Part shown: positions 2,170 to 57,042 of the stretch, piece after piece | How positions within the stretch are numbered: the first letter of the stretch is position 1 | Layout: each line of letters begins with the position of its first letter | Source of the DNA: Phenylobacterium zucineum HLK1 | GTDB taxonomy: Bacteria > Pseudomonadota > Alphaproteobacteria > Caulobacterales > Caulobacteraceae | NCBI RefSeq assembly: GCF_000017265.1 | Contig: NC_011143.1 | Location: forward strand, 124,001 to 188,000 | DNA length: 64,000 nucleotides | Reading direction: 5' to 3' | Program-made: the position numbers and the translations under genes | Notes under the pieces: generated by a model | What the model saw: only the letters and a program-made list of their open reading frames with translations | Databases searched by the model: none | Told to the model about the DNA's origin: nothing

Positions 2170-2183
2170 TTGATCGACGTCAA
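2170..2183 (+). promoter_or_regulatory. FNR/FixK-type operator upstream of the 2232 gene and glk
   Basis: The sequence TTGATCGACGTCAA matches the TTGA-N6-TCAA palindrome exactly, and the flanking A/T extend the dyad to ACTTGA...TCAAGT. It ends 48 bp before the ATG at 2232, a plausible activator position. The match is seen directly; regulation is inferred. Confidence 0.75.
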
Positions 2184-2231
2184 GTCGAGCACCGCAGCGC
2201 CGGGCAGGGTCGGCGTGAAGGAGTAAATGCG

Positions 2232-2486
2232 ATGTCAGCTTATCAAGTCGCGACCAGGCAGGCGTATGACGGCGGCGAGGCGCCGACGGAGTCCGTTGGG
2301 CATCTGCAAGAGGCCGGAGGCGTGACGCTGTTCGAAGTGGCTCCTGAGGGCCGGTCGTGGCTGATCAAGCACAATCGCGGCGGGCTCGGGCGTGTGGGCG
2401 ACAAGGCCGAGGCGATCCAGATCGCCGGCGGTCTGGCCGCCTGGTGCAAGGCCCAAGGGAGGCTGGTGAGCTTCCAGCCGGAGTAG
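2232..2486 (+). CDS. Small conserved-type protein of unknown function, FNR-box-preceded
   Basis: 84 aa with no signal peptide or membrane segment. The middle (about 28-55) alternates beta-like stretches, FEVAPEGRSWLIKHN then GDKAEAIQIAGGLAAWCKAQG. That resembles the small DUF2188-type fold, in which a beta hairpin is followed by a helix containing AEA-A, but the family is not certain. The ATG at 2232 has an upstream GAAGGAG Shine-Dalgarno. The glucokinase GTG follows the stop codon with no gap, so the two are one transcription unit behind the box at 2170. A role linked to sugar phosphorylation or stress is possible, but nothing in the sequence fixes it. Confidence 0.7.
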   Translation: MSAYQVATRQAYDGGEAPTESVGHLQEAGGVTLFEVAPEGRSWLIKHNRGGLGRVGDKAEAIQIAGGLAAWCKAQGRLVSFQPE

Positions 2487-3497
2487 GTGACGGCGGCTCG
2501 ACCCCAGAGCGAGTTGTGGTCAGGCCTGGTGGCCGATCTCGGCGGCACGAACACCCGCTTCGCGCTGGTCGATCGGCGCGGTCGTCTTCAGGCGTCGAAG
2601 ACCTATCCGGCGGCCGCGTTCCACTCGGTCGATGAAGGCTTGGCCAGGTACCTCCGCGACGTCGCGCCCGGCGCAGCCCCGCCCGCAGCGGTGCTGGCGA
2701 TCGCAGGCCAGGTGACCGACGGTCGCGCGCGCTTCTCCAACCTGCCTTGGACGGCGGACGCCGCCGCGCTTCGCGCGGCGTTCTCCTTCCGCGCGGTCGA
2801 ACTCATTAACGACTTCGTGGCTCAAGCCCTGGCGGCGCCGCGCCTTGCGCCGGAGCACCTGCGGCCACTTGGGAGGCCGAGCAAGGCGCAACCCGGCGTG
2901 ATCGCGGTCATCGGCGCCGGCACCGGCTTTGGGGCGGCGGGGCTCGCGCCTGGACCGGCTGGCGAGACGCCGATCGCTTCAGAAGCCGGCCACGCCGGCT
3001 TCGCGCCCGCGGACGAATTCGAGCTGCGGCTGTGGGAGCGACTGAAGAGGCGTTTCGGCCGCGTCTCGATCGAGCGCGTGCTGTCGGGCCGCGGGCTCGT
3101 CGCGATCTATGAGGCCGTCCGGGACCAGGGGGCGATCACTCAGCCTGCCGAGGTCGTCGCGGCTGCAAGGCAGGGCGAGAACGAAGCGCAGCAGGCGCTT
3201 TCGCGGTTCGTGACGATCTACGGCCGCGTCGCCGGCGACCTTGCCCTCACCTTCGGGACTCGGGCCGGCGTCTACATTTCCGGCGGAATCGCGCCGAAGA
3301 TCCTCGACTGGCTGGAGAGGCCCGCCTTCCGTGAAGCGTTCGAGGACAAAGGGCGGTTAAGCGGCTTCGTCCGATCCGTGCCCACCTTCGCGGTGACCCA
3401 CCCGGACCCGGGCCTGCTAGGCGCCGCACGGCGGCTCACGGAGCTCCTAGAGGCATCGGCCGCGGCTCAGGACGGCTGCGCCGAAGCGCACTCATAA
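2487..3497 (+). CDS. glk: Glucokinase (ROK-independent, Glk family)
   Basis: 336 aa, close to the usual 320-340 for bacterial Glk (EC 2.7.1.2; ATP + glucose to glucose 6-phosphate, cytosolic). The phosphate-1 motif ADLGGTNTRFAL is at about residues 15-27. The phosphate-2/ATP region IGAGTGFGAAGL lies near 140, followed by the SEAGHAGFAP loop that carries the conserved Glu-His pair contacting glucose. A glycine-rich segment (YISGGIAPKI) is near 260-270. The GTG start at 2487 follows the TAG of the upstream small gene directly. The last 31 bp overlap the end of the convergent gene at 3467. A glucokinase behind an FNR-type box fits a switch to glycolytic ATP production when oxygen is limiting (inference). 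Confidence 0.93.
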   Translation: MTAARPQSELWSGLVADLGGTNTRFALVDRRGRLQASKTYPAAAFHSVDEGLARYLRDVAPGAAPPAAVLAIAGQVTDGRARFSNLPWTADAAALRAAFSFRAVELINDFVAQALAAPRLAPEHLRPLGRPSKAQPGVIAVIGAGTGFGAAGLAPGPAGETPIASEAGHAGFAPADEFELRLWERLKRRFGRVSIERVLSGRGLVAIYEAVRDQGAITQPAEVVAAARQGENEAQQALSRFVTIYGRVAGDLALTFGTRAGVYISGGIAPKILDWLERPAFREAFEDKGRLSGFVRSVPTFAVTHPDPGLLGAARRLTELLEASAAAQDGCAEAHS

Positions 3498-4021
3498 CCT
3501 CGGGGCCCGCCAGCGGCGATCAAGGCCTGCAGGTCCCGCCTCACACCACAGACGATCGCGTGCGCCTCGCGGTTTTCGTCGGGGGGGACGAGCCGCTCGA
3601 CGACCGCCAGTCGGTCCGCGAGTTCAGGCAGCTCACGCGCGCCGTCTGCGGGTAGTCTGTCGAGCAGCGCCTCCCGCTGTTCGAAGAGGAGGTCCAGGCA
3701 GCCCTCGATGTCGCGCAGCTCTCGCGCCCACGGCAGCGCGCGTTGCTCCGGGGCCGACAGCTCACACCAGTTGTGGTTTTGAATGAGCCAGCTCTCGAGC
3801 TTCGCCCAACGCGTTTGCAGCCGCTCGATGCGGCTGTCGATCGCCAGCCAGCTGCGGAAGAGCTGGCCTGGCCCCGGCCCAGGCGATCCGGCCGCCGGCG
3901 GGTCCAGGACCGCCGTGGCTGCGGGGACGGGCAATGCGACGGCGGACGCCCCGGCGAGAAGCGACCGGCGCGAGACCGCGTGCGCAGATGCGCCGCCGCC
4001 CGCCTGAGGACGTGAGCCCAT
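3467..4021 (-). CDS. Exported hypothetical protein, Tat-like signal peptide
   Basis: 184 aa. The N-terminus has a twin-arginine-type signal (SRRSLLAGASAVALPVPAATA, residues about 18-38). A proline/glycine-rich linker follows, then a largely helical region (about 60-175) rich in Trp, Arg and Glu. I do not recognise the family. The ATG at 4021-4019 sits in a short AT-rich spacer divergent from the HTH gene at 4122. Its 3' end overlaps glk tail to tail by 31 bp. The helical content and lack of other motifs suggest a small periplasmic protein; no function can be assigned. Confidence 0.65.
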   Translation of the reverse strand: MGSRPQAGGGASAHAVSRRSLLAGASAVALPVPAATAVLDPPAAGSPGPGPGQLFRSWLAIDSRIERLQTRWAKLESWLIQNHNWCELSAPEQRALPWARELRDIEGCLDLLFEQREALLDRLPADGARELPELADRLAVVERLVPPDENREAHAIVCGVRRDLQALIAAGGPRGYECASAQPS

Positions 4022-4121
4022 GATTGAACCTGCTCATCACAAGAGATCAGTTTATGATCATGGCCTGGCGACGCCGCTGTCAAATTAAAATGCACATAGA
4101 CGATTACATTCTGATCACGAC

Positions 4122-4364
4122 ATGTTGACGGCGGCGCAGATTCGCGCGGCGCGGGCCCTCATCGGCTGGAGCCAGCCAGACCTGGCCAGGGCCTCGGGGC
4201 TGTCGCTGCCGACCATCGTGCGGATGGAGGGCCGACCGGGTCCGGGCCGCAGCGCCGCCGCCAATGTGGAGGCCGTGCGATCCGCCCTCGCTGCGGCCGG
4301 CGTCGTCTTTATCGCCGCGGAAGACGGCGCCGGCCCAGGCGTCCGTTTGAAGGCGGACGAATAG
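4122..4364 (+). CDS. Small XRE-type helix-turn-helix protein
   Basis: 80 aa. Residues 1-65 form a Cro/CI-type HTH: LTAAQIRAARALIGWSQPDL, then ARASGLSLPTIVRMEG as the recognition helix region. The rest (AAAGVVFIAAEDGAGPGVRL) matches the common tail of short alphaproteobacterial HTH proteins, in which a beta strand follows the HTH. The preceding 100 bp (4022-4121) is unusually AT-rich for this window and probably holds divergent promoters for this gene and the exported protein. Targets are unknown. Confidence 0.85.
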   Translation: MLTAAQIRAARALIGWSQPDLARASGLSLPTIVRMEGRPGPGRSAAANVEAVRSALAAAGVVFIAAEDGAGPGVRLKADE

Positions 4365-4384
4365 CGAGGCGCGCGCGATGGCCC

Positions 4385-6991
<2,607 letters not shown>

Positions 6992-7067
6992 GAGACTCTC
7001 TCCTGCCGCTTCTTGCCCCTCAATTAGGGCGCTCGCCGCGACGCGCCAGTTCGTCGGGAACCGCAGA

Positions 7068-7619
7068 TCACGACGGTCCTGGCGCATCGCGAGGCGCCGC
7101 AGAAACGACGACCCGGGCGGGTCGGATCAGGCGCTCCGGCAACCGATAGCCCGCCTGCAGCACCTCAAGGACATGGCCCGGCGGCGCGGTGGCGTCAGCC
7201 CGCGTCGCCACCGCCTCGTGCGCCGCCGCGTCGAACGGCTGACCGAGCGGATCGAGCCGCTCCACGCCGATCTTCTCCAGGGCGTCGAGCAGTTCGCGGC
7301 GCGCCGCCCGAACACCGTCGCGAACGGCTCTGGCGAACGCCTGGCCGCCTTCGTTGTCCGGAGGCTCGACCCGGACTGCCAGGTCGAGGCCGTCGAGCCC
7401 CGGGATCAATCGACCCGTCAGCTCGGCCACGCCAGCCTTCCAGCCTTCGTTGCGGGCCCTCTCCGCGCGTCGCCGAGCGTTCTCGGCGTCGGCGAGCGCC
7501 CGCAGGAGACGCTCGCGAAGGCTTGAGACCGCCTCCGGCTCATCGGGTGCTGGCGCGCCGGCGGCGGGCACGTCGCCGTCGTCGAGAGTAGGTGGTTCGC
7601 TGTCCATCGTGCTGTTCAT
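7068..7619 (-). CDS. grpE: Nucleotide exchange factor GrpE
   Basis: 183 aa. An acidic, proline-rich N-terminus (1-30) is followed by a long helix (about 32-75, [20 protein letters not shown]) and the GrpE beta domain (about 120-175, with [14 protein letters not shown] and [25 protein letters not shown]). It releases ADP from DnaK. It is shorter than housekeeping GrpE (about 195-205 aa), mainly in the N-terminal tail. ATGs at 7619 and 7607 are both possible. It lies 32 bp after dnaK and 76 bp before clpB. A complete dnaK-grpE-clpB operon is unusual, since housekeeping grpE in alphaproteobacteria normally sits with hrcA; this suggests a second, dedicated set (inference). Confidence 0.95.
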
Positions 7620-7651
7620 CCACGCGATACGCGGGCGTAGGTCCTTGATCC

Positions 7652-9514
<1,863 letters not shown>

Positions 9515-9571
9515 GATCAGCCTCTCCACTGTTCAACTCGGGCAAGGCTGAACCCATGACGCGGGCCCAAA

Positions 9572-9623: not shown

Positions 9624-10568
9624 TTAGGAGCCGGCCTCTTTGCGCTCGCCACTCAGCCTGTTCAGGGCTTCGGAGATGCGTGCCTGCATCCGCTCGAGCG
9701 CCGCTTCGAAGTTCGAGCCCTGCTGGACGCCGCCTTCGAGGCTGCGGATTTCGGCGAGCAGCGCCTTACGGGTCTCCTTGTCGCCGTAGCCCAGGTCTTC
9801 GGTGCGCTCGAGCGCCTCACGGGCGGCGGTGAGGTGCTGCGCCTTGCGCTGCGGATCCTTGTCGGATCGCGCAGCCTCCACCGCGCCTTGAGCGACCACG
9901 AGGGGAAGCGGCGTGACCTCATCGACCATGACTAAGGTGGACCGGGCGCGGTTAAGCACCTCGGCCGCTTCGGCGTTCTTCTGCTGATCGAGCAGGGCCG
10001 CCGTCTGGGCGAGCGCGTCGGGGTAGGTCCCGAGCGGGATGTGGTAGGTCCTGACGCGGATTTCGCTTCGCAGCGAGTCGAGGATCAGGCGCGCCTTGGC
10101 GAGATCGTCAGCGATCACCGCCAGTTGCAAGCTGCGCCGCATGCGGCCGATCCGACCCTCGTCATCAGGCGCAGAGTCGATCACATGGACCTCGGCCGCA
10201 GCCGGGATCAGGGCGTTGGCCGGGTTGCGCCCCACGAGGATCTTGGCCTTGCCCGCCGCGGCCTCCAGGGCCGAGAGCGCGCCGGCCCGGTCGCCGGCGG
10301 CGATTCTTGCAATGGCCCGGTCGGTCTCGGCCAGAACGGCGATGGCTTCCGCATCCAGTGTGCCTTGGGCGGCTGTCTCCGCCTCGGCGCGGTGGCGTTC
10401 ATAAGGGCCCCCGGGCCTGGGGGTCTGGCTGGCCCCTGGCGCGCTGCCCGCTGCGGGGACGGAGGCGGAGGCTGGTGTGTCGTGGCGCCAGGGCCGCCAG
10501 ACCAGCAGCGCGACGATGACGACTGCGGCGATGACGGCGAGCGCGGTCCAGAGGCGGCGTGAACGCAT
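9624..10568 (-). CDS. YfdX family protein, membrane-anchored or exported
   Basis: 314 aa from the ATG at 10568, chosen for its GGGAGAAAG ribosome-binding site; the upstream in-frame ATG at 10598 lacks one. A single hydrophobic segment near the N-terminus (LWTALAVIAAVVIVALLVW, about 5-23) is followed by a Pro/Ala/Ser linker. The YfdX domain (about 80-300) is recognisable from NPANALIPAAAEVHVIDSAP and the AxLDxxxxxIRVRTYHIPLGTYP block. YfdX proteins are periplasmic, helical and linked to acid and heat tolerance; two copies are found in transmissible stress-tolerance loci. It is oriented like dnaK, with its own FNR-type box 86 bp upstream. Confidence 0.85.
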   Translation of the reverse strand: MRSRRLWTALAVIAAVVIVALLVWRPWRHDTPASASVPAAGSAPGASQTPRPGGPYERHRAEAETAAQGTLDAEAIAVLAETDRAIARIAAGDRAGALSALEAAAGKAKILVGRNPANALIPAAAEVHVIDSAPDDEGRIGRMRRSLQLAVIADDLAKARLILDSLRSEIRVRTYHIPLGTYPDALAQTAALLDQQKNAEAAEVLNRARSTLVMVDEVTPLPLVVAQGAVEAARSDKDPQRKAQHLTAAREALERTEDLGYGDKETRKALLAEIRSLEGGVQQGSNFEAALERMQARISEALNRLSGERKEAGS

Positions 10569-10785: not shown

Positions 10786-10799
10786 TTGACCAAGGTCAA
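10786..10799 (+). promoter_or_regulatory. FNR/FixK-type operator upstream of the universal stress protein operon
   Basis: TTGACCAAGGTCAA, a near-perfect palindrome fitting TTGA-N6-TCAA, within CTTGACC...GGTCAAG. It lies 80 bp before the ATG at 10880. Together with the 10655 site it gives the divergent promoter region two separate operators. Confidence 0.75.
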
Positions 10800-11731: not shown

Positions 11732-12106
11732 ATGCCAGACTCAGTTCGTCCCAGCAGAAGAAGCGTCGCGGCGTTGCTCGTGGTGGCGGCGGCCTTCGCG
11801 CCGGCTCTTGCCAAGGCGCAGACGGCGTCGGCCAAGGCGCTGGTTGACGCCGCCAAGGCCGAGGGGAAGGTGGGTGAACAGTCCGACGGCTTCCTGGGCT
11901 TTGTGACGCCAACCTCGGACCCGGCGCTCGAGGCGGCTGTCGCGGAGATCAACGCCGGAAGACGACGGGTCTACGAAGACACCGCCAAACGCAACGGGGT
12001 GACGCCCGAAGTCGCTGGCGTCGCCGCCTTTAAGGTCCTGCGCGACACGAAGCTAAAGGCCGGCGACTACTTCAAGGACGTGGACGGTGTCTGGCGCCGC
12101 AAGTAG
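11732..12106 (+). CDS. YdbL-like (DUF1318) exported protein
   Basis: 124 aa. The N-terminal signal peptide (RRSVAALLVVAAAFAPALAKAQ, cleavage after about residue 29) is followed by the DUF1318 layout: AKALVDAAKAEGKVGEQSDGFLG, then AAVAEINAGRRRVYEDTAKRNGVTPEVAGVAAFKVL. YdbL proteins are periplasmic and usually sit beside YdbH/YnbE, which link the envelope membranes; those partners are absent here. It lies 12 bp after the Usp gene and overlaps the possible GTG start of pdhA by 20 bp, so it is part of one operon. Function in this context is unknown. Confidence 0.8.
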   Translation: MPDSVRPSRRSVAALLVVAAAFAPALAKAQTASAKALVDAAKAEGKVGEQSDGFLGFVTPTSDPALEAAVAEINAGRRRVYEDTAKRNGVTPEVAGVAAFKVLRDTKLKAGDYFKDVDGVWRRK

Positions 12107-13145
12107 GTCCGCGCCGCGCCGCCACCAGCGGTCTTCGATGCTCAGCGCCTCCGGGAGCGGGCGCTCGCTCGCCGAAGATGGCCTTCGTACCCTGCTCCAC
12201 GACGTCGAGCAGATGAGCCTGATCCGGCGCTTCGAGGAACGGGCCGGCCAGCTCTACGGGATGGGCCTGATCGGCGGCTTCTGCCACCTCTACATCGGCC
12301 AGGAGGCCGTCGCAGTCGGCGTCGTCGGCGTCCGCGCCGAAGGCGATCAGGTCATCACCAGCTATCGCGACCACGGCTACGCCTTGGCCTGCGGCATGGA
12401 TCCGGCCGCGATGATGGCCGAGCTCACCGGCCGCATCGGGGGCGCTTCCCGCGGCAAGGGCGGGTCGATGCACATCTTCGCGCCTGAAAAGGGCTTCTAT
12501 GGCGGGCATGGCATCGTGGGCGCGCAGGTCAGCCTCGGCTCCGGGCTCGCCTTCGCCAACCGCTACCGCAACCAAGACAAAGTTGCCTTCGTCGTGTTCG
12601 GTGAAGGTGCCGCCAACCAGGGTCAGGTCTACGAGAGCTTCAACATGGCCGCGCTCTGGAAGCTGCCGGCCGTCTACATCATCGAAAACAACCGGTACGC
12701 CATGGGCACCGCGGCCGAACGCTCCGCCTCCGAAACGCGGTTCTATCGCCGCGGCTTGTCGTTCGGCATCCCGGGAGAAGAGGTGGACGGCATGGACGTG
12801 GAGGCCGTGCGGGAGGCCACGAGCCGTGCGGCCGCCCACGCTCGCGCCGGGAAAGGCCCGTATCTGCTGGAAATGAAGACCTACCGATATCGCGGCCACT
12901 CGATGAGCGACCCCGCCAAGTACCGGTCGCGAGAGGAGGTCGACGAGGTCCGGCGCGCTAAGGACCCCATCGAGCGGGCCCGGCAGCGAATCTTGGACCT
13001 CGACCCCGCACAGGCCCATTCCCTTGCGCAGATCGACGCGCGCGTGAAGGCCGAGGTCGAGCGGGCGGTCGAATTCGCCCAAACCGCGCCGGAGCCCCCG
13101 GCGCGCGAGTTGCTCTCCGACGTCTACGTCACCGCGGTCAGCTGA
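12087..13145 (+). CDS. pdhA: Pyruvate dehydrogenase E1 component alpha subunit (orphan)
   Basis: 352 aa if translated from the GTG at 12087; an ATG at 12138 would give 335 aa and avoid the overlap with the upstream gene. The sequence is E1-alpha throughout: YIGQEAVAVG, SYRDHGYALACG, RGKGGSMH, then the thiamine-diphosphate region FGEGAANQGQVYESFNMAAL ending in IIENNRYAMGT, and the phosphorylation-loop region YRYRGHSMSDPAKYR. In the ThDP motif the usual GDG is GEG here, so the Mg2+-ligand Asp is replaced by Glu. No E1-beta, E2 or E3 gene follows; the next gene is a truncated AraC gene and an IS element. It would need an E1-beta partner from elsewhere. Confidence 0.92.
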   Translation: MSGAASRSAPRRHQRSSMLSASGSGRSLAEDGLRTLLHDVEQMSLIRRFEERAGQLYGMGLIGGFCHLYIGQEAVAVGVVGVRAEGDQVITSYRDHGYALACGMDPAAMMAELTGRIGGASRGKGGSMHIFAPEKGFYGGHGIVGAQVSLGSGLAFANRYRNQDKVAFVVFGEGAANQGQVYESFNMAALWKLPAVYIIENNRYAMGTAAERSASETRFYRRGLSFGIPGEEVDGMDVEAVREATSRAAAHARAGKGPYLLEMKTYRYRGHSMSDPAKYRSREEVDEVRRAKDPIERARQRILDLDPAQAHSLAQIDARVKAEVERAVEFAQTAPEPPARELLSDVYVTAVS

Positions 13146-14011: not shown

Positions 14012-14275
14012 GTGAAGAAGAGCAGGTTCAACGAGGCGCAGATCATCGGCGTGCTGCGGGAGCAGGAGGCCGGGAGCCCGACGGCGGAGGTTTGCCGGCG
14101 GCATGGGATCAGCGAGCAGACCTTCTACCGGTGGAAGGCGAAGTACAGCGGCATGAACGTGTCGGATGCCCAGAAGCTGAAGACGCTGGAGGACGAGAAT
14201 CGGCGACTGAAGAAGCTCTTGGCGGAGTCCATGCTCGACGTGTCGGCGCTGAAGGACCTGCTGGGAAAAAACTGA
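14012..14275 (+). CDS. IS3 transposase OrfA (HTH protein)
   Basis: 87 aa from the GTG at 14012 ([20 protein letters not shown]). Residues 1-55 are the HTH_Tnp_1 DNA-binding domain ([22 protein letters not shown]) and about 58-85 a leucine-zipper coiled coil ([19 protein letters not shown]). It recognises the IS ends and pairs with OrfB. It ends LLGKN-stop right after the A_AAA_AAC slippery sequence at 14266, where a fraction of ribosomes shift -1 to make the OrfAB transposase. Confidence 0.93.
14266..14272 (+). other. Programmed -1 ribosomal frameshift site of the IS3 element
   Basis: A_AAA_AAC is a classic X_XXY_YYZ heptamer in the orfA reading frame, just before the TGA at 14273-14275. After a -1 slip the next codons read CTG ATC GGG, entering the orfB frame without a stop. 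Confidence 0.85.
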
Positions 14276-15177
14276 TCGGGCCTGCAGCGCGCCGGGAGGC
14301 CGTGCTTCGCCTGATGGCGGAGCGCGGCTTCTCGCAGAGGCGCGCCTGCGGGCTGGTCCAGGTCGATCCGAAGACAGTGCGCCGCGTGGCCCAGCCAGGC
14401 GATGCGGAGGTACGCGCCCGGCTGCGGGGCCTGGCGGCGGAGCGACGCCGCTTCGGCTACCGGCGGCTCGGCATCCTGCTCGAGCGTGAAGGCGTCAGCA
14501 TGAACAAGAAGAAGCTCTTCCGGCTGTACCGCGAGGAGGGCTTGGCGGTGCGAAGGCGGCGCGGCCGCAAGCGCGCCACCGGCACGCGGGCGCCCATGGC
14601 GCTGCCGGACGGGCCGAACCAGCGCTGGAGCCTGGACTTCGTGGCCGACACGCTGAGCTGGGGCCGGCGCTTCCGGATCCTGTGCATCGTCGACGACTTC
14701 ACCCGCGAGGCGCTGGCGCTGGTGGTCGACACCTCGATCGGCGGCCATCGCATGGCCCGCGAGCTGGACGCCCTGATCGCCCGGCGCGGCCGGCCGGCGA
14801 CCATCGTTAGCGACAACGGGACCGAGATGACCAGCCGGGCCATGCTGGAATGGACCAACCGCACCGGCGTCGACTGGCATTACATCGCGCCCGGCAAGCC
14901 GCAGCAGAACGGCTTCGTCGAGAGCTTCAACGGCAAGCTGCGCGACGAGTGCCTGAACGAGGAGGTCTTCGCCAACCTCGCCGAGGCCCGGGCTGTCATC
15001 GAGCGCTGGCGGCTCGACTACAACCACGTCAGGCCGCACTCGGCGCACGGCGGACTGACCCCGGAAGCCGTGCGTCTGAACCCCGCGGCCGGCCGGCTGC
15101 GCAACTTGATCAGCTCCACCGCCCGGCCGCTACCGCCGGCGCTGGAGATCAGCTACCAACCCCCTGGGCTCTCATAA
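14272..15177 (+). CDS. IS3 transposase OrfB (DDE integrase domain)
   Basis: About 300 aa downstream of the frameshift, in frame -1 relative to orfA. An HTH_21 segment ([20 protein letters not shown]) precedes an rve/DDE integrase core. The catalytic Asp is in WSLDFVAD, the second Asp in [10 protein letters not shown], and the Glu in [19 protein letters not shown]. The tail matches the IS407-type [12 protein letters not shown]. No stop or frame break is visible, so the element is probably still functional. An internal ATG at 14314 could start a separate OrfB. Confidence 0.92.
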
Positions 15178-22943: not shown

Positions 22944-26555
<3,612 letters not shown>

Positions 26556-26562
26556 GGGGCGC

Positions 26563-28203
26563 TCACCCTCTTCCGGGTTCCTGGATCATTTCGATCGCGT
26601 GACAGGGACAGGTTTCGAAGCAGACCGCGCAGCCGGTGCACCGATCGTACAGGTAGCGGTAACGCCGGCCGGGCCCGAGCTTCTCGATCGCCTGCTCGGG
26701 ACAGGCCGCGTAGCACTGATCGCACTCGAAGCAGTTGCCGCAGGACAGGCAGCGTCTGGCCTCAAACCGGGCGGCGGCCTCGCTCAGCCCGGCCTGGATT
26801 TCCGCGAAACCGGTCGTGCGATCAGCCGGCGCAATCACCGGCTGTACGCTCGGCTCGGCGTCGCTGTAGACCGGCAGGTGCAGCATATCGAAGGAGACGA
26901 CCGGCGACCTTTGCGCCGCGGGGACATCGTCGGCGCGCAACCAGGCGTCGATCCGCCGCGCGGCGGCCTTCCCGTGGCCGACCGCCGTCGTGACGGTCCG
27001 GGCGCCCGGCGCCATGTCGCCGCCGGCGAAAATCCCGGGATGACCGGTCATCATCTTCTGATCGAGGACGACCGCGCCGTCTGACTGGAACGCGACGCCC
27101 GGAATCTTCTCCAGCAAGACCCGCTCCACCTGTTGCCCCAGCGCGAGCACGACCGCGTCGGCGGCGAGGGTTTCGAAGCGTCCTGTCGGCTGCGGCCGGC
27201 CGTCGAGGTCGAGCTCCATGCGCTCGACCGTGAGTTCGGTTCCTTCGAGCGCGTCGAGGCGCGTCAGCCACTTGATCTTCACGCCTTCCTCGACGGCCTC
27301 TTGCGCCTCGAAGGCGTGGGCTTCCATGTGCGCACGATCGGAGACGAAGACGATGAGGGCTTCCTCCGCGCCGAGGCGCTTGGCGCTGCGCGCCGCGTCC
27401 ATGGCGGTGTTGCCGGCCCCGTACACGACGACGCGGCGGCCGAGCTTCGGCGCCTCGCCGCTGGCGACGCCGCGCAGCAGACTGACCGCCGTCACGAGCC
27501 GGGCGGCGTCGCTGGCCGGAAGGTCGATGCGCTTGCCGATCTGGGCGCCGATGGCGAGGAAGACGGCGTCGAAACCGCCGCTGGCCTTCTCCGCAAGCAC
27601 GTCCTCGACTTTGTGGTTGAGGACGATCCTGACGCCCATCGCCTCGATCGTCTGGACCTCCTTCAGCAGATCGGCGCGCGGCAGCCGATAGGCCGGGATG
27701 CCGAACTGCATCATGCCGCCGGGCTGCGGAGCCGCCTCGCGGATCTCCACGTCATGTCCGAGCCGCGCCAGGTGATAGGCGGCCGACAGGCCGCTCGGGC
27801 CTGCGCCGACGACGAGCACCCGCTTGCCGGAGGGCGGCTGCCGAATCGGCAGGGTCCACCCTTGCGCCGCCGCCACGTCTCCGAGGAAGCGCTCGACCGC
27901 GTGGATCGACACCGAACTGTCGAGCTGGGCTCGGTTACAGGCGCTTTCACAGGGGTGATAGCAGACGCGGCCATGCACCGCGGGCAGGGGATTGTCTTCG
28001 ACCAGGGCCAGCCAGGCTTCGCGATAGCGACCGGCTTGCGCATGCGCGAGCCAGGCCTGGATGTTCTCGCCCGCCGGACAGGCGTCGTTGCAGGGCGGGA
28101 GAAGATCGGCATAGAGCGGACGCCGCGCGCGCGTCGGCCCGGCGCCGGGGGCGCCAAGCAGATCGACAAGCCGCGTGAAATCCGGGTGCTGTCCCGCGGT
28201 CAC
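26563..28203 (-). CDS. NAD(P)H-linked flavin/Fe-S oxidoreductase (glutamate-synthase-beta-like) with C-terminal ferredoxin domain
   Basis: 546 aa. The N-terminal Fe-S segment (CNDACPAGENIQAW and CYHPCESACNRAQLD, about 38-100) matches the GltD-type cluster domain. The FAD site VVGAGPSGLSAAYHLARLG is near 130 and the NADPH site VVYGAGNTAMDAARSAK near 270. The C-terminus (about 470-540) carries two [4Fe-4S] motifs, CLSCGNCFECDQCYAACPEQ and CTGCAVCFETCPCHAIEM. It is not a glutamate synthase subunit: no large subunit is present and it adds ferredoxin clusters. Its position directly before nifJ suggests electron transfer between NAD(P)H and the ferredoxin pool that serves PFOR. Direction of flow is unknown. 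Confidence 0.88.
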   Translation of the reverse strand: MTAGQHPDFTRLVDLLGAPGAGPTRARRPLYADLLPPCNDACPAGENIQAWLAHAQAGRYREAWLALVEDNPLPAVHGRVCYHPCESACNRAQLDSSVSIHAVERFLGDVAAAQGWTLPIRQPPSGKRVLVVGAGPSGLSAAYHLARLGHDVEIREAAPQPGGMMQFGIPAYRLPRADLLKEVQTIEAMGVRIVLNHKVEDVLAEKASGGFDAVFLAIGAQIGKRIDLPASDAARLVTAVSLLRGVASGEAPKLGRRVVVYGAGNTAMDAARSAKRLGAEEALIVFVSDRAHMEAHAFEAQEAVEEGVKIKWLTRLDALEGTELTVERMELDLDGRPQPTGRFETLAADAVVLALGQQVERVLLEKIPGVAFQSDGAVVLDQKMMTGHPGIFAGGDMAPGARTVTTAVGHGKAAARRIDAWLRADDVPAAQRSPVVSFDMLHLPVYSDAEPSVQPVIAPADRTTGFAEIQAGLSEAAARFEARRCLSCGNCFECDQCYAACPEQAIEKLGPGRRYRYLYDRCTGCAVCFETCPCHAIEMIQEPGRG

Positions 28204-28228
28204 TTGCGCAACTCCGTCAGTCGTCCTG

Positions 28229-29266
28229 CTAGGCCGCGATGATTACCTTCAGCGCCTGGGTGTCCGCGGCGCGGGCGAAGGTGTCGTAGGCGGCGAGAAT
28301 CTCATCGAGCCTGAAGCGATGCGTGATGAGCTGGCTCGGGTCGAGCTTCCTGGATTGCACCGTCTTCAACAGCATGGGCGTCGACACCGTATCCACCAGT
28401 CGCGTGGTGATGGCGATGTTCTGCGACCACAGCCGATCCAGGTGCAGATCGACCTTTCGGCCATGCACGCCGATATTGGCGATCACCCCGCCCGGGCCGA
28501 CCAGGTCCTGGCAAAGCTCGAAGGTCGCCGGGACGCCGACCGCTTCGATCGCGGTGTCGACGCCGCGGCCGCCGGTCAGCGCCTTCACCGTCTCGGCCGC
28601 GCGGCCGTCCCCGCTGTTGATGGTCTGGGTCGCGCCGAACTGCCGGGCGATCCCCAGCCGGTTGTCGTCGAGGTCGATCATGATGATCTCGGCGGGCGAA
28701 TAGAACTGGGCGGTGAGCAGGGCGGCCAAGCCGATCGGTCCGGCGCCCACGATGGCCACCGTCCCGCCCGGCGCGACCTTGCCGTTGAGCACTCCGCATT
28801 CGAAGCCGGTGGGCAGGATGTCGCTCAGCATGACCAGCGCCTCCTCATCGGCGCCGGCCGGGACCGGATAGAGGCTGGTGTCGGCATGGGGCGTGCGGAC
28901 GTATTCGGCCTGGGTGCCGTCGATCTCGTTGCCGAGGATCCAGCCGCCCGTGGTGCAATGCGAATACATGCCGCGCCGGCAGTAATCGCATTTGCCGCAG
29001 GCCGAGATGCAGGAGATCAGGACATGGTCCCCCGGGCGGAAGGCGGTGACCGCGGCGCCGACGGAGTCGACGATCCCCACGCCCTCGTGGCCGAGGATTC
29101 GCCCCGGCGCGCAGGTCGCGACATCGCCCTTGAGGATGTGCAGATCTGTCCCGCAGATCGTCGTCTTGACAATCCGCACGATCGCGTCCCCCGGCGCCTG
29201 AAGCTCGGGCTTGGGTCGATCTTCCAGCGACTTTTGCCCGGGCCCGCCGTACACCAAGGCTTTCAT
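28229..29266 (-). CDS. Zinc-dependent alcohol dehydrogenase (MDR family)
   Basis: 345 aa from the ATG at 29266 (MKALVYGGPG), preceded by GGAGAG; longer in-frame starts add Arg-rich non-homologous sequence. Catalytic zinc ligands lie in ICGTDLHI and GHEGVGIVDSVG. The structural zinc loop has four cysteines (ISACGKCDYCRRGMYSHC). The nucleotide site is AIVGAGPIGLAA with an acidic residue (IDLDDNR) that favours NAD. It most resembles the broad formaldehyde/alcohol dehydrogenase group found in FNR/DosR-type regulons. It is first in the adh - flavin oxidoreductase - nifJ - DHOD-like run, 25 bp ahead of the next gene. Substrate cannot be read from sequence. Confidence 0.92.
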   Translation of the reverse strand: MKALVYGGPGQKSLEDRPKPELQAPGDAIVRIVKTTICGTDLHILKGDVATCAPGRILGHEGVGIVDSVGAAVTAFRPGDHVLISCISACGKCDYCRRGMYSHCTTGGWILGNEIDGTQAEYVRTPHADTSLYPVPAGADEEALVMLSDILPTGFECGVLNGKVAPGGTVAIVGAGPIGLAALLTAQFYSPAEIIMIDLDDNRLGIARQFGATQTINSGDGRAAETVKALTGGRGVDTAIEAVGVPATFELCQDLVGPGGVIANIGVHGRKVDLHLDRLWSQNIAITTRLVDTVSTPMLLKTVQSRKLDPSQLITHRFRLDEILAAYDTFARAADTQALKVIIAA

Positions 29267-29811
29267 CGGACTCTCCTGCCGTTCAGCTGGCTTGACGCAC
29301 GCGCGTCGCGAACCTTTCAGCTTTGCCGCGAGAAATCGCGCGAAAACCATGTCGCCTGCGCCCCCGCCGAGCGGGATCGTCCCGCCAACGCTCGGCCGGC
29401 GGCGCCGCACGGCAAGGACATGAGGCGCCTCGGGCGGGGCAGGGTCCCTGCCGGCCGTCTCGACGCGACGAGCGGATGGGAACGCGCGTGCCTGCAGGGA
29501 GCGAGGCATCGGTCCGATGATGCCAGCACGCCAGCCCGGTCCGGAGGCGCCCGGCTCCCCTGGGCAGGATGCCGCTAGGGACGAATAGCGGCGCCGCCCC
29601 GGATCCGGACGCCCCCACGTAAGGAGAGACCAGGTCCTGCGTCATGGAAGCGACGCCGGGGGCGTGCGGCGATGGCGCCGAAGCGGACCTTGGCCAGGCA
29701 GCGGCGACACGCGCCGTTCATCCAACGCCGCGAGGCAGGAATGACATCCGAAGTTCGGAGTATGGTCCAACCCTCGGGCGGGTGGAGCTCACGCACAAGG
29801 TTCCACGCCCA
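29267..29811. other. Divergent intergenic stretch
   Basis: 545 bp between the alcohol dehydrogenase and the phasin-like gene. Open frames here lack recognisable composition or ribosome-binding sites. No TTGA-N6-TCAA site is present, although the adh-nifJ run would be an expected FNR target. Nothing else is seen. Confidence 0.5.
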
Positions 29812-46312: not shown

Positions 46313-46960
46313 CTAAGGCTGGAGCAGTTTCTCGGCGCGGGTCTTGGCCCAGCAGTCGGCGAGGGGGCAGGCCTGGCACGTCTCGGCCATGGCCTGGCGC
46401 AGGGCGCCTCGGGCGCGGTGCAGGCGCACGGCGGCGTTGTTGGCGGTGAGCTCGAGCCGGCGGGCGACCTCTTTGAGCGGCCGGTCCTCGAGATAGGTCT
46501 CGCCGAGGATCTGCCGGTACTCGGGCTTGAGCGCGCCGAGCGCGGCCTTCAGGCAGTCGCTCGGGGCGACGAGATCCGCCTCGTCGTCGGCCGCGTCCGG
46601 GGCGGGCTGGACGGCGAGGGCCTCGAGGGTGCGGCGCCGGACCGCGTCCCTTCGGTAGCGGTCGACCACCAGCCGGCGCAGGGAGACGCCCATCCAGGCC
46701 TGCGGGCGCTGGACCGCGCCGAGGGTTTCGGCGTGCTGCAGGAACTTGATGGCGGCGTCCTGCCAGGCGTCCTCGGCGTCCTGCAGGCAGGGCAGGCGGC
46801 TGCGCAGGAAGCGCAGCTGGCGGGGCCGCTCGGCGGCGAGCTGCAGGGCGAGGTCAGGGGCGCCGCCTTGAGTATCCGACAGCCCGGAGAAAGATTCCCA
46901 CGGCTGTAATGTTTCGGCGCGCCCAGCGTTGTCGAATTGTGAAGCAGCGGCGTGAAGCAT
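46313..46960 (-). CDS. ECF-type RNA polymerase sigma factor with C-terminal cysteine motif
   Basis: 215 aa from the ATG at 46960 (MLHAAASQFDN), supported by GAGGGAC upstream and the operator at 47019; a start at 47032 would overlap the operator. Region 2 (about 45-110) includes LPCLQDAEDAWQDAAIKFLQ and RRLVVDRYRRDAVRRR. Region 4 (about 145-195) includes LGALKPEYRQILGETYLEDR and PLKEVARRLELTANNAAVRL. The end has CQACPLADC, a CX2CX4C arrangement that could bind metal or sense redox. No anti-sigma gene is adjacent. It would be under FNR/FixK control by its upstream box. Confidence 0.9.
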   Translation of the reverse strand: MLHAAASQFDNAGRAETLQPWESFSGLSDTQGGAPDLALQLAAERPRQLRFLRSRLPCLQDAEDAWQDAAIKFLQHAETLGAVQRPQAWMGVSLRRLVVDRYRRDAVRRRTLEALAVQPAPDAADDEADLVAPSDCLKAALGALKPEYRQILGETYLEDRPLKEVARRLELTANNAAVRLHRARGALRQAMAETCQACPLADCWAKTRAEKLLQP

Positions 46961-47018: not shown

Positions 47019-47032
47019 TTGATCGGGATCAA
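47019..47032 (-). promoter_or_regulatory. FNR/FixK-type operator upstream of the ECF sigma factor
   Basis: TTGATCGGGATCAA, identical to the site at 10655 and a perfect FNR consensus. Its edge is 58 bp from the chosen ATG (46960), the same spacing as at dnaK. Confidence 0.78.
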
Positions 47033-50955: not shown

Positions 50956-50956
50956 G

Positions 50957-52663
50957 GTGGCGTCTTCCGCGGTCATCGAGGCGCAAGGACTCGGCCGCCG
51001 ATTTGGCGCGCGTACGGTCCTCGAGGGCCTGAGCTTCGAAGTCCACGCGGGCGAGGTGTTCGGGATCGTCGGCCCGGATGGGGCCGGCAAGACCACGCTT
51101 CTGCAGATGCTGGCGGCGATCCTGCGCCCGAGCGCCGGGACCTGCCAGGTCCTAGGCGTCGATGTCAGACACCGTCCCAGCCTCGTTCAGGCCAGGGTCG
51201 GCTTCATGTCGCAGGGCTTCTCGCTGTACGACCGACTGACGGTTGCGGAGAACCTCGCCTTCGCCGCGGCGATCCGCGACGTCCCGCAGCCTGCCTTGGC
51301 ACCGCGTAAGGCGGAGCTCCTGGCGATGGCCGGGCTGGACCGGTTCCAAAAGCGTCGGGAGGGCGCGCTCTCGGGCGGCATGCGCAAGAAGCTCGCGCTG
51401 TGCGCCAACCTTATCCACGAGCCGCCCTTGCTGATCCTCGATGAGCCGAGCCTGGGCGTCGATCCGCTGTCGCGCCGAGAGCTCTGGCGGATTCTCGACC
51501 GCGCCAGAGCGGGCGGGCGCACCATCGTGTTCGCGACATCCTACATGGACGAGGCCGATGCCAGCGACCGGGTGATGCTGCTCTCGGGCGGTCGTCCGCT
51601 GGCGCTGGGGCCCCCCGGCGAGTTGCGGGCTCGGGCGCAGGGCCGCGTCTATCAGATCAAAGCCTCAAAGGCGGCGGGCCTCGAAGATGCGCTTCAGGCC
51701 CAGCCCAAGGTGATCAGTTTTCAGCGCCGCGCGGGCGACGAGCTGCGCGTGCAGATGCGCGACGCCGCCCCGCCTGAGACTGTCGAAGGACTCACCGCCG
51801 AGCCGGCCGAGCCGTCGATGGAGGATGTGTTCACGGTCGCCTCGGCGGGACCCGGACCTCCGCCGCCCGAGTCTATGCGGGCTGCGCTTGGGACCGAGGC
51901 GCCGGCGCACCGGGCGGACCGATCGGTCATCGACGCCGCGGGCGTCACCCGCCGTTTCGGCGATTTCACCGCCGTCGACGCGGTGACGCTTTCAGTCCGG
52001 TCGGGAGAGATCCTCGGCCTGCTGGGGCCGAACGGTGCGGGCAAGACCACCCTGATCCGCATCCTCTGCGGCCTTCTCGCGCCCACCCACGGCCGCGCCC
52101 AGGTGGCCGGCTTCGACGTCGCCCGCGAAAGCGCCGAGGTCCGCGCGCGGATCGGCTACATGTCCCAGCGCTTCTCGCTCTATCCGGATCTCACCACGCG
52201 GGAGAACCTGAGATTCTTCGCGCGGGCCTACGGGGTGGCGCGCGATGCGCTGGACACCCGCACCCGCTGGGCTGCGCAGCGCACGGGTCTGGACGCCGAC
52301 GATCAGAAGACGGTCGCCGCCTTGTCCGGCGCCATGCGCCAGCGACTGGCGCTGGCCTGCGCCATCGTGCACCGGCCGGAGGTGCTCTTCCTGGACGAGC
52401 CCACCTCCGGCGTCGATCCGCTCTCCCGCTATCGGTTCTGGCGGTTGATCGCCAGCTTGGCGGCCGACGGCATCGGCGTGGTGGTGACCACCCATTACCT
52501 CGAAGAGGCGACCTTTTGTGATCGTCTCGGCCTGATGATGGACGGGCGGATGATCGCCCACGGCGCCTTGTCGGACTTGACGCAAACGCTCGGCTTGCAG
52601 CGCGCCAGCGTGGAGGATGTGTTTCTGGGCTTCATCGCCCGCGAACGGGCGAGGGCGGCGTGA
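50957..52663 (+). CDS. ABC transporter, two fused ATP-binding domains (YbhF-like)
   Basis: 568 aa from the GTG at 50957. Two complete nucleotide-binding domains: NBD1 with Walker A GPDGAGKTT, signature LSGGMRKKL and Walker B LLILDEPSLGVDP; NBD2 (from about residue 322) with Walker A GPNGAGKTT, signature LSGAMRQRL and Walker B VLFLDEPTSGVDP. The second signature has LSGAM in place of LSGGQ. A linker of about 70 residues joins the halves. The gene precedes two ABC-2 permeases with a 4-bp overlap, the same order as ybhGFSR of E. coli. Confidence 0.94.
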   Translation: MASSAVIEAQGLGRRFGARTVLEGLSFEVHAGEVFGIVGPDGAGKTTLLQMLAAILRPSAGTCQVLGVDVRHRPSLVQARVGFMSQGFSLYDRLTVAENLAFAAAIRDVPQPALAPRKAELLAMAGLDRFQKRREGALSGGMRKKLALCANLIHEPPLLILDEPSLGVDPLSRRELWRILDRARAGGRTIVFATSYMDEADASDRVMLLSGGRPLALGPPGELRARAQGRVYQIKASKAAGLEDALQAQPKVISFQRRAGDELRVQMRDAAPPETVEGLTAEPAEPSMEDVFTVASAGPGPPPPESMRAALGTEAPAHRADRSVIDAAGVTRRFGDFTAVDAVTLSVRSGEILGLLGPNGAGKTTLIRILCGLLAPTHGRAQVAGFDVARESAEVRARIGYMSQRFSLYPDLTTRENLRFFARAYGVARDALDTRTRWAAQRTGLDADDQKTVAALSGAMRQRLALACAIVHRPEVLFLDEPTSGVDPLSRYRFWRLIASLAADGIGVVVTTHYLEEATFCDRLGLMMDGRMIAHGALSDLTQTLGLQRASVEDVFLGFIARERARAA

Positions 52664-54857: not shown

Positions 54858-54894
54858 GACGCGCCGCCAGACTGCGGAAAGGCAGGATCATGTC

Positions 54895-55911: not shown

Positions 55912-55963
55912 TCCGGCGCAGGCGCCGCGCGTCCTATCGTGAGGCTCCGTCGGAGGTCCAGCC

Positions 55964-56527
55964 TTGCTCCGTCCGTCCAAGTCTCGCCGGCGGCGCGCCT
56001 TCTCCAGCCGGCTGCCAGCCGCGGTCTGCGGGGCCCTGATCATGGTCCTCGCGTTTGTGGCCCTGCTGGCGCCGCTGGCCGGACCGACGATCGCTGTCGC
56101 CATCTTCGCGGGCGTCTTGCTCGGCGCGGGCTTGGCCGGGACAGTGGCGCTGCTTGATCTGCGCACGCCAGGGCTGGCGTGGCGCATCGCCTGGGTGAGC
56201 CTCGCCACCTTGTCGGGCTTGGCCGTCCTTTATCACCACTGGACCGGATCGGGGTCTCTGCGTGGGGTGGTCGGAGCGGCGCTTGTGCTCTTCACCCCCT
56301 CTGTCGTGGCGCTTGCGCTGCATCGCCGGGCCCGCGGCGGCCGTGCATGGCTGTGGCCGAGTCTGGGAGGGGTGGCGGCGCTCGCGCTGGTCGGGCTTCT
56401 GATCTGGGCGCCGCCGCATTTGGGCCTGATGCTTCTGGGCCTCTTCCTGGCGGTCAATCTGGCGGCTTTCGGCGTCACGCTGATCGCCAGCGACCTGGCG
56501 CGGGACATCAGCGCCGAGGCGCTCTGA
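55964..56527 (+). CDS. HdeD/DUF308-like membrane protein (tentative)
   Basis: 187 aa from the TTG at 55964, 7 bp after GGAGG. A basic N-terminus (RPSKSRRRRAFSSR) is followed by six membrane helices with the HdeD-type spacing: three pairs with short loops, ending LGLMLLGLFLAVNLAAFGVT. HdeD proteins protect against acid and are part of stress-tolerance loci. The similarity is in topology and composition rather than a clear motif, so this is tentative. It ends just before the strong hairpin at 56552. Confidence 0.6.
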   Translation: MLRPSKSRRRRAFSSRLPAAVCGALIMVLAFVALLAPLAGPTIAVAIFAGVLLGAGLAGTVALLDLRTPGLAWRIAWVSLATLSGLAVLYHHWTGSGSLRGVVGAALVLFTPSVVALALHRRARGGRAWLWPSLGGVAALALVGLLIWAPPHLGLMLLGLFLAVNLAAFGVTLIASDLARDISAEAL

Positions 56528-56551
56528 ACCGCGGTGCAGCAGATTGCGCTT

Positions 56552-56577
56552 GGGAGCGGACCCGAAGGTCCGCTCCC
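56552..56577. terminator. Strong hairpin between convergent genes, probable bidirectional terminator
   Basis: GGGAGCGGACC (56552-56562), CGAA tetraloop, GGTCCGCTCCC (56567-56577): a perfect 11-bp GC-rich stem. It lies 25 bp after the HdeD-like stop and 72 bp beyond the end of the convergent DUF5676 gene. No T run follows, so termination strength is uncertain. Confidence 0.6.
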
Positions 56578-56648
56578 GGCGCAAGGCCTGACCAGGGCGA
56601 TCAGGCTAAGGGCGAGCGGGACGGGGGGCACTCGCCCATTTTCGCGGC

Positions 56649-56882
56649 TCAGCGCCGGCCGCGAAACAGGTTGTAGAGGCCGCCGGCGACCAGCGCCGTG
56701 TACCAGCCGCAGGCGAAGGCGCCCACGGCGCCCAGAACGATGTCCGAGGGTTCGCGCCAGTCGAAGACGGGAACGATCCGCGCGAGGAAATGCCCAAGGT
56801 CCGGAGGCAGCAGATAGCCGAGCGCCACGCAGAGCAGGACGGTCAGCAGGAAGAAGACAGAGAGGCTCCAGCTCAGCGCCAT
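56649..56882 (-). CDS. DUF5676-like small membrane protein
   Basis: 77 aa from the ATG at 56882 (MALSWSLSVFFLLTVLLCVA); a GTG at 56891 would add three residues. Two membrane helices (about 3-22 and 44-66). The block ending in FACGWYTALVAGGLYNLFRG matches the DUF5676 end (GWY-ALV-PLYN). Function unknown; such proteins occur in metal and stress islands. Confidence 0.7.
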   Translation of the reverse strand: MALSWSLSVFFLLTVLLCVALGYLLPPDLGHFLARIVPVFDWREPSDIVLGAVGAFACGWYTALVAGGLYNLFRGRR

Positions 56883-57028
56883 GAGCTGCACGCCGGAACC
56901 GGCGCGTCACTGATCGATGGCTTCGCTGCGGCTCATGGCCGGCCTCCAAGCGCCGGCCTCTGCCCCGGCTCTATGAACAAGACGCCGGGCTCGGCGCGAA
57001 CTTACACAGACGGCCTGTGCGAGTGGGC

Positions 57029-57042
57029 TTGACTTGCCTCAA
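57029..57042 (+). promoter_or_regulatory. FNR/FixK-type operator upstream of ftsH
   Basis: TTGACTTGCCTCAA fits TTGA-N6-TCAA exactly; the inner bases are less symmetric than at the other sites. It ends 52 bp before the ATG at 57095. Confidence 0.68.

What the first reader, a model, noticed from the sequence alone, without database searches (positions are those of the whole stretch)
2170..57042. Six FNR/FixK-type palindromes tie chaperone, protease, stress and sigma-factor genes into one oxygen- or redox-responsive regulon
Exact TTGA-N6-TCAA sites occur at 2170, 9572, 10655, 10786, 47019 and 57029, each 48-86 bp upstream of a start codon and none inside a gene body. The genes behind them are the small gene + glk, dnaK-grpE-clpB, yfdX, usp-ydbL-pdhA, an ECF sigma factor and ftsH. 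A FixK-like regulator is encoded at the left edge. Heat-shock machinery is normally controlled by RpoH or HrcA, so FNR-type control of a whole proteostasis set is unusual and gives the island a common logic.
Basis: partly seen in the sequence, partly recalled or inferred. Interest (0 to 1): 0.82.

Follow-up and report, generated by a model that had tools for sequence, protein, structure and literature searches.

The report
Plasmid chaperone genes under low-oxygen switch
A bacterial plasmid carries spare copies of protein-repair genes behind DNA switches of the kind normally thrown when oxygen runs low, so the cell probably prepares for protein damage when it runs short of air rather than only when it is heated.

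Summary
Observation confirmed. All six TTGA-N6-TCAA sites are where stated, 48-86 bp before a start codon; 6 seen, 0.18 expected. The genome is Phenylobacterium zucineum HLK1, the replicon its plasmid. New evidence: an A/T-rich hexamer peaks exactly 22 bp after the sites, as expected for -10 boxes of activators at -41.5, in plasmid, chromosomal and relatives' sites separately. Sites persist where neighbouring upstream DNA has diverged and are absent before housekeeping-type dnaK (0 of 29 relatives). The plasmid has its own FixLJ, FixT-like and FixK-like genes; that FixK is a better candidate than the left-edge gene. A plasmid rpoH also has a site. Overstated: plasmid groESL, the four Hsp20s found, four of six usp and one rpoH have no exact site. 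FixK/FnrN stress regulons are known; this extends the kind to DnaK-GrpE-ClpB and RpoH. No expression data.

The parts
2170..2183 (.). FixK-type site TTGATCGACGTCAA before the 84-aa gene and the downstream gene called glk
   Evidence: a site also stands before the 84-aa homologue in L128 and L129
2232..2486 (+). 84-aa protein of unknown family, 48 bp after the site
   Evidence: no Pfam or NCBIfam match; homologous stretches in L128 (72% over 68 aa) and L129 (87% over 52 aa)
   Evidence: ORF; homologues in L128 and L129
4385..7087 (-). clpB
   Evidence: TIGR03346 1402 bits over cut-off; ClpG and ClpK models not met
7068..7619 (-). grpE
   Evidence: Pfam GrpE
7652..9514 (-). accessory dnaK, first gene of dnaK-grpE-clpB
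   Evidence: PRK00290 and TIGR02350 over cut-off; three full DnaKs in the genome
9572..9585 (.). FixK-type site 57 bp before dnaK
   Evidence: the paralogous dnaK at C1:57448 has one at 53 bp
9624..10568 (-). yfdX
   Evidence: Pfam YfdX 126 bits
10655..10668 (.). FixK-type site 86 bp before yfdX
   Evidence: kept in L128 and L129 within diverged DNA
10786..10799 (.). FixK-type site 80 bp before usp
   Evidence: kept at the same distance in L128 and L129
10880..11719 (+). universal stress protein gene
   Evidence: Pfam Usp
11732..12106 (+). ydbL-like (DUF1318)
   Evidence: Pfam
12087..13145 (+). pyruvate dehydrogenase E1 alpha
   Evidence: TIGR03182 over cut-off
46313..46960 (-). ECF sigma factor
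   Evidence: sigma70 regions 2 and 4; 91% identical paralogue at C1:228513
47019..47032 (.). FixK-type site 58 bp before the ECF sigma gene
   Evidence: the paralogue has a site at 57 bp
57029..57042 (.). FixK-type site 52 bp before ftsH
57095..59002 (+). ftsH
   Evidence: TIGR01241 758 bits over cut-off
1..594 (-). Crp/Fnr-family regulator, cut by the window edge (whole gene C1:123842-124594, 250 aa); possible but not leading regulator
   Evidence: Pfam cNMP_binding, HTH_Crp_2; 79 bits to the FixK model; homologue in L128

Best explanation
The sites are operators and activator sites (class II, centred near -41.5) of a FixK-type Crp/Fnr regulator. The plasmid carries a FixL-like kinase, FixJ, a FixT-like receiver and a FixK-like regulator at C1:222431-225845, and the chromosome carries a FixJ, a FixT-like receiver and a FixK-like protein as well. 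Low oxygen would activate FixL, phosphorylate FixJ and raise FixK, and FixK would switch on the plasmid's two extra dnaK-grpE-clpB operons, yfdX, usp-ydbL-pdhA, ftsH, two related ECF sigma genes and a plasmid rpoH. Proteostasis is thereby tied to oxygen limitation, beside whatever control the chromosomal dnaK has. Shown: sites, positions, -10 geometry, conservation, presence of the cassette. Inferred: binding by FixK, direction (activation), oxygen as the signal, and which FixK acts.
For: Motif enrichment and spacer specificity on C1; replicon bias and start proximity. A/T-rich hexamer peaking exactly 22 bp after the site in 12 oriented C1 rows (0 of 5000 shifts), 15 C2 rows (p 0.0002) and 12 rows from relatives (p 0.002), not seen at six C1 sites that are not placed before starts. 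yfdX and usp sites kept in two Phenylobacterium MAGs at 85 and 81 bp (window 87 and 81 on the same count); paralogous dnaK and usp upstream regions share little besides the site. Housekeeping-type dnaK lacks it: 0 of 29 relatives and the own chromosomal copy. Positive controls in the same genome: ccoN (exact site, 62 bp to the likely start) and both FixT-like genes (34 bp, exact on C2, one mismatch on C1). FixJ over cut-off, FixL-like PAS kinase, FixK with ETVSR. The genome paper notes plasmid FixLJ and chaperones (PMC2529317, passages). Other orders: Azospirillum and Methylorubrum extorquens AM1 accessory dnaK runs have an exact site at their head.
Against: No expression or binding data. Many plasmid stress genes have no exact site. 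hemN, a classical target, has only a one-mismatch site upstream; the exact site near it lies at its 3' end. Of 14 plasmid-borne dnaK records read, none has an exact site within 350 bp of dnaK and 11 have none at the head of the dnaK gene run within the stretch fetched. Of 16 YfdX matches outside this genome in the class sample only one has a site upstream, and G070's YfdX has none. A strict search for a site before dnaK hits 1 of 385 class genomes, this one only (it misses the own second copy). No FixK-like protein here reaches the curated FixK cut-off. On the chromosomal stretch C2b only 1 of 8 sites lies 40-130 bp before a called start (2 of 8 with the ccoN start).
Confidence: 0.75

Rival explanations
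1. The sites belong to a Crp/Fnr regulator other than FixK: the left-edge protein, its island-2 paralogue (C1:63955), or a regulator of nitric oxide or redox signals, so the trigger is not oxygen through FixLJ.
For: Both island regulators keep E..SR or E..CR helices and sit beside the chaperone islands; homologues stay with the island in L128 and L130, and L130's has a site 43 bp upstream. The genome has 15 HTH_Crp_2 matches over the cut-off.
Against: They score 79 and 58 bits with the FixK model against 244 and 218 for the two closer proteins; no site within about 300 bp (window) or 200 bp (island 2) upstream of them in this genome even with one mismatch. ccoN and the FixT-like genes carry the same sites, which points to FixK.
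Confidence: 0.2
2. The sites are real FixK sites inherited with the mobile island but mostly idle: the chaperone operons are chiefly under RpoH or constitutive control and FixK adds little.
For: Plasmid rpoH copies exist (PMC2529317). Many stress genes lack sites.
Against: No gene of the listed stress classes on C1 has a match to the sigma-32-like pattern used (own recalled consensus, weak test); -10 geometry and conservation argue for use.
Confidence: 0.15
3. Chance or compositional artefact.
For: Six of 18 C1 sites are not promoter-like.
Against: Shuffles give 0.18 for 6; rank 1 of 200 arms, only at spacer 6; conservation.
Confidence: 0.01

Closest known systems
FixLJ-FixK2 microoxic regulon, Bradyrhizobium diazoefficiens (PMC6515984, passages read)
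   Same: Microoxia raises several USPs, a DnaJ-like protein, PEP synthase, glucokinase, a 1-phosphofructokinase-family kinase, host-attachment proteins, Hsp20, GroES and ClpB; some (Hsp20 blr7961, USP blr2761, nitroreductase blr4652) are listed as direct FixK2 targets. The chromosome here has sites at usp, PfkB, PEP synthase, Hsp20 and host-attachment genes.
   Different: There ClpB (blr1404) and DnaJ (blr4653) are not listed as direct FixK2 targets; here sites stand directly before two dnaK-grpE-clpB operons and an rpoH, on a plasmid with its own FixLJ and FixK-like genes.
FnrN-dependent small heat-shock protein RLV_1399, Rhizobium leguminosarum (PMC11784457, abstract and passages)
   Same: A chaperone gene behind TTGA-N6-TCAA (centred -87.5 to the start codon), about 50-fold microaerobic induction lost without FnrN.
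   Different: One Hsp20 gene; FnrN rather than FixK.
Alphaproteobacterial FnrL/FixK regulons (PMC2908626, PMC4999443, passages)
   Same: Consensus TTGANCNNGATCAANG; a USP in the predicted FNR regulon and an Hsp20 in a predicted list; Caulobacterales use FixLJ-FixK.
   Different: PMC4999443 has no occurrence of chaperone, heat shock or hsp in its main text; the one occurrence of DnaK in PMC2908626 is a DnaK suppressor.
Transmissible locus of stress tolerance / locus of heat resistance (PMC8067161, passages)
   Same: Mobile, YfdX plus Clp disaggregase plus stress proteins; plasmid copies of YfdX.
   Different: ClpB here fails the ClpK and ClpG models; that paper tests Cpx and EvgA and has no occurrence of FNR.
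DevR/DosR and OsdR hypoxia regulons of actinobacteria (PMC5069765, passages)
   Same: Low-oxygen switch over USPs and a heat-shock protein; the OsdR prediction also lists nitroreductase and pyruvate phosphate dikinase.
   Different: Unrelated regulator and operator.

Membership tests
FixK/FNR-type operator | TTGA-N6-TCAA palindrome enriched before genes | tested here: met
FixK/FNR-type operator | Class II promoter geometry (-10 about 22 bp after the site) | tested here: met
   selected rows, paralogous rows not independent
FixK/FNR-type operator | Bound by the regulator; expression changes with oxygen | not testable with these tools
   needs experiment
FixK regulon | cbb3 oxidase gene shares the sites | tested here: met
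   ccoN TIGR00780 763 bits; exact site 3227270, 62 bp before the likely start, other possible starts 8, 23 and 236 bp
FixK regulon | hemN shares the sites | tested here: inconclusive
   exact site 3217923 lies at the 3' end of hemN; upstream only TTGATCTGAATCAG, one mismatch, 23-35 bp
FixK (NCBIfam NF050806) | Score at or over the curated cut-off of 300 bits | tested here: not met
   244 (C1:222431), 218 (C2:3211003), 79 (left edge), 58 (C1:63955); they are called FixK-like
FixK-like Crp/Fnr | E..SR recognition helix, no N-terminal cysteine cluster | tested here: met
   TIETVSR in both closer proteins, read by eye
FixLJ system | FixJ (NF006900) over cut-off | tested here: met
   285 bits, cut-off 255
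FixLJ system | FixL (rhizobial model) over cut-off | tested here: not met
   584 bits, cut-off 850; best hit; PAS plus HisKA plus HATPase
tLST / locus of heat resistance | ClpK or ClpG disaggregase | tested here: not met
   774 and 807 bits against 1900
RpoH/HrcA-type dnaK control | sigma-32-like promoter before plasmid dnaK | tested here: inconclusive
   none with a recalled pattern that hits 3 of 358 C1 genes; not calibrated on known promoters

The most novel reading that the evidence does not exclude
The plasmid is a self-contained, transferable oxygen-to-proteostasis circuit: its own FixLJ, FixT-like and FixK-like proteins drive two duplicated DnaK-GrpE-ClpB/YfdX/USP islands directly and, through a FixK-driven rpoH and two ECF sigma factors, a second tier of plasmid chaperones (groESL, Hsp20s) that lack sites themselves.
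Probability: 0.3. Interest if true: 0.72.

Novelty: new variant of a known kind. Interest (0 to 1): 0.52.

Why it matters
Core chaperones are textbook heat-shock genes. Here accessory dnaK-grpE-clpB copies, a membrane protease gene and a heat-shock sigma gene stand behind low-oxygen sites, while the housekeeping dnaK does not. If true, division of labour between paralogues by regulatory input (oxygen versus heat) becomes directly testable in one strain, and the chaperone islands on Azospirillum and Methylorubrum plasmids may use the same logic. It may also bear on how this bacterium copes inside host cells, which is speculation.

Tried and rejected
Rejected: chance. Rejected: tLST membership, because the ClpK and ClpG models were not met. 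Rejected as leading regulator: the left-edge gene. Rejected on re-check: an exact FixK-type site before hemN; the exact site lies at its 3' end and only a one-mismatch site is upstream. Tried: a general rule that plasmid-borne dnaK carries such sites. It fails: of 14 records read (of 137 with a match, 60 listed), none has an exact site within 350 bp of dnaK; three (two Azospirillum, Methylorubrum AM1) have one at the head of the dnaK gene run. At least three of the 14 (L169, L170, L174) have dnaJ right after dnaK and look like housekeeping copies. Tried: YfdX in general. It fails outside close relatives: 1 of 16 matches. Tried: strict dnaK-site pattern over the class: 1 of 385 genomes; the pattern misses even the second copy here, so it is a lower bound. 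Tried: sigma-32-like promoters with a recalled consensus: uninformative. The genome-contig scan with YfdX gave three loci only. L129 and G006:C15 are the same sequence and L130 and G097:C7 the same region, so they count once each. Gene calls on C1 and C2 come from my own GC-frame script, starts partly uncertain; the rpoH start (C1:52710, GTG) and the ccoN start were chosen by hand. In the -10 test I used 12 rows from 11 of the 18 C1 sites and 15 rows from 13 of the 37 C2 sites, picked by distance to a start; three divergent sites entered twice, the near-identical ECF pair counts double, and the 68-aa gene's row, shown, was left out. Of the 12 relatives' rows, the three from L128 show no clear hexamer by eye.
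Full report
WHAT WAS CLAIMED AND CHECKED. Six exact TTGA-N6-TCAA palindromes are in the window at the stated places; shuffles give 0.18 on average and 2 at most. Distances to the start codons are 48, 57, 86, 80, 58 and 52 bp. Pfam and NCBIfam confirm DnaK, GrpE, ClpB, YfdX, USP, DUF1318, PDH E1-alpha, ECF sigma and FtsH; glk was not tested. The left-edge gene is a Crp/Fnr protein; whole, it is C1:123842-124594.

WHERE IT IS. The window is bases 124001-188000 of C1, a 382,976-bp contig beside a 3,996,255-bp one. These are the plasmid and chromosome sizes of Phenylobacterium zucineum HLK1 in its genome paper (PMC2529317, passages). That paper reports two plasmid DnaK-GrpE clusters, two plasmid RpoH, nine plasmid Hsp20, plasmid GroESL and a plasmid FixLJ cluster; FixK has no occurrence in its main text, and the passages I saw draw no link between FixLJ and the chaperones.

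BACKGROUND RATE. Genome-wide there are 55 sites against 10 for the pattern read backwards. 18 are on C1 and 37 on C2; 18 of 55 on 8.7% of the genome has binomial p 5e-7. Among 200 four-base arms with expectation of at least 0.5 on C1, TTGA ranks first (18 against 1.55); other spacers 0-15 give 0-3. On 796 kb of C2 it also ranks first, of 201 (8 against 1.25). On C1 13 of 18 sites are intergenic against 13% of sequence. 10 of 18 C1 sites stand 40-130 bp before a called start against 8.1% of positions; with the rpoH start chosen by hand it would be 11. On the C2 stretch only 1 of 8 does, 2 of 8 with the ccoN start. The own count of 55 is the third highest of 24 same-genus genomes, own included, which range from 4 to 62.

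WHAT STANDS BEHIND THE SITES. On C1: usp at 50240 and 134880, an rpoH-like sigma-32 gene at 52632 (PRK06596 293 bits over cut-off 241; TIGR02392 288 bits under 323), dnaK at 57448 and 133514, BON and yfdX at 65856, yfdX at 134568, two related ECF sigma genes, ftsH, the 84-aa gene and a 68-aa gene. The plasmid holds two parallel islands, about C1:48.8-66.6 kb and 123.8-137.1 kb, with paralogous dnaJ, MerR, usp, ydbL, pdhA, dnaK, clpB and yfdX genes and FixK-like regulators. On C2 sites stand before usp, PfkB, Na/Ca exchanger, PEP synthase, Hsp20, class II ribonucleotide reductase, host-attachment, BON, TonB-receptor, protoglobin chemoreceptor, AurF-like, metal ATPase, hemerythrin, ftrB, ccoN and FixT-like genes, among others. 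Several C2 sites lie inside called ORFs. The exact site near hemN is at its 3' end; upstream of hemN is a one-mismatch site.

PROMOTER GEOMETRY. For an activator at -41.5, the -10 hexamer starts 22 bp after the 14-bp site (recalled geometry). Oriented on their genes, 12 C1 rows show the highest A/T hexamer exactly at gap 22 (0.61 against a mean of 0.35; 0 of 5000 circular shifts as high); 15 C2 rows show the same maximum at the same gap (0.46 against 0.23; p 0.0002). Twelve rows from relatives peak at gap 22 as well (0.68 against 0.46; p 0.002), with three ATAATC boxes in Azospirillum but nothing clear by eye in the three L128 rows; six C1 sites not placed before starts show no peak.

CONSERVATION. 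In two Phenylobacterium MAGs (L128, L129) the yfdX-usp intergenic region keeps both sites at 85 and 81 bp (87 and 81 here on the same count) although the DNA round the yfdX-side site differs; round the usp-side site it is well conserved. A site also stands before the 84-aa homologue. In L128 and L129 yfdX is followed by clpB without dnaK. Brevundimonas bullata keeps the island-2 yfdX/BON site, but there the two proteins are about 99% identical, so it shows transfer rather than constraint. Within this plasmid, dnaK and usp paralogues share little upstream beyond the site. Azospirillum brasilense has four sites in 25.6 kb: two between divergent usp genes, one before a redoxin gene, and one 153 bp before a BON-HdeD-GrpE run that continues with short Cpn10 and Cpn60 reading frames (possibly truncated), DnaK, ClpB and Hsp20. 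Methylorubrum extorquens AM1 has one 117 bp before grpE-dnaK.

CONTROLS AGAINST. Housekeeping-type dnaK: 0 of 29 family loci have an exact site within 400 bp (30 best-matching loci were read; the thirtieth is the window's own copy), nor has the own chromosomal copy. Sphingomonad, rhizobial, Lichenicola, Qingshengfaniella and betaproteobacterial records of the plasmid set: none within 350 bp of dnaK. YfdX elsewhere in the class: 1 of 16 matches. So the arrangement is sporadic, not general to plasmid dnaK or to YfdX.

WHICH REGULATOR. The plasmid has a FixK-like gene C1:222431 (TIETVSR helix), a FixL-like kinase, FixJ and a single receiver domain with a near-consensus site TTGCTGCAGATCAA 34 bp before its likely start; the chromosomal receiver gene has an exact site, also 34 bp before its start. 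FixT of Caulobacter is such a receiver, a feedback inhibitor of FixLJ and part of the microaerobic regulon (PMC7078487, abstract and passages); calling ours FixT-like rests on position and domain. The chromosome has another FixJ and FixK-like protein in the same region as ccoN. The left-edge and island-2 regulators are more distant. No FixK-like protein reaches the curated cut-off.

MECHANISM. Shown: sites, spacing, promoter-like geometry, conservation, the sensory cassette. Inferred: low oxygen activates FixL, then FixJ, then FixK; FixK activates the site-bearing operons. The rpoH and ECF genes could pass the signal on to groESL and Hsp20 genes without sites; this second tier is untested. One Hsp20 gene has a degenerate site about 200 bp upstream (C1:117004).

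NOVELTY. FixK/FnrN-type control of stress genes is known: an FnrN-dependent Hsp20 (PMC11784457), a USP in the FNR prediction (PMC2908626), and in Bradyrhizobium a microoxic set of USP, DnaJ, PEP synthase, glucokinase, a phosphofructokinase-family kinase, Hsp20, GroES and ClpB with partial direct FixK2 control (PMC6515984). What I did not find in print (searches; open-access papers only; of the papers listed, nine were opened, by passages) is FixK-type sites before dnaK-grpE-clpB and rpoH, or a plasmid that carries both a FixLJ-FixK cassette and that set. It is a new variant of a known kind.

Noticed in passing
window 22944-29509: A pyruvate:ferredoxin oxidoreductase gene, a pyridine-nucleotide iron-sulphur oxidoreductase and an alcohol dehydrogenase form an apparently anaerobic or fermentative block on the plasmid; no exact FixK-type site lies in it.
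   Followed up: no
G000:C2:459-476 kb (L038, L039): Chromosomal cluster with PfkB, USP, Na/Ca exchanger, PEP synthase and Hsp20 genes and six sites in 15 kb, much like the Bradyrhizobium microoxic set.
   Followed up: partly
G000:C2:688478 (L040): A class II (B12-dependent) ribonucleotide reductase gene has a site about 110 bp before its called start; it would supply oxygen-independent DNA precursor synthesis. A site near a cobalamin adenosyltransferase gene (C2:3577416) is 8 or 284 bp from its possible ATG starts, so its link is doubtful.
   Followed up: partly
G000:C2:769298 and 769451 (L041): Two sites between a hemerythrin gene and ftrB, another Crp/Fnr regulator, which suggests a regulatory cascade.
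   Followed up: no
window 14092-15177: An rve-type integrase core gene, probably from an insertion sequence, lies close to the stress island.
   Followed up: no
   Followed up: partly
G000:C1:228513 and window 46313: Two 91% identical ECF sigma genes whose upstream regions are nearly identical, site included; their targets are unknown.
   Followed up: no
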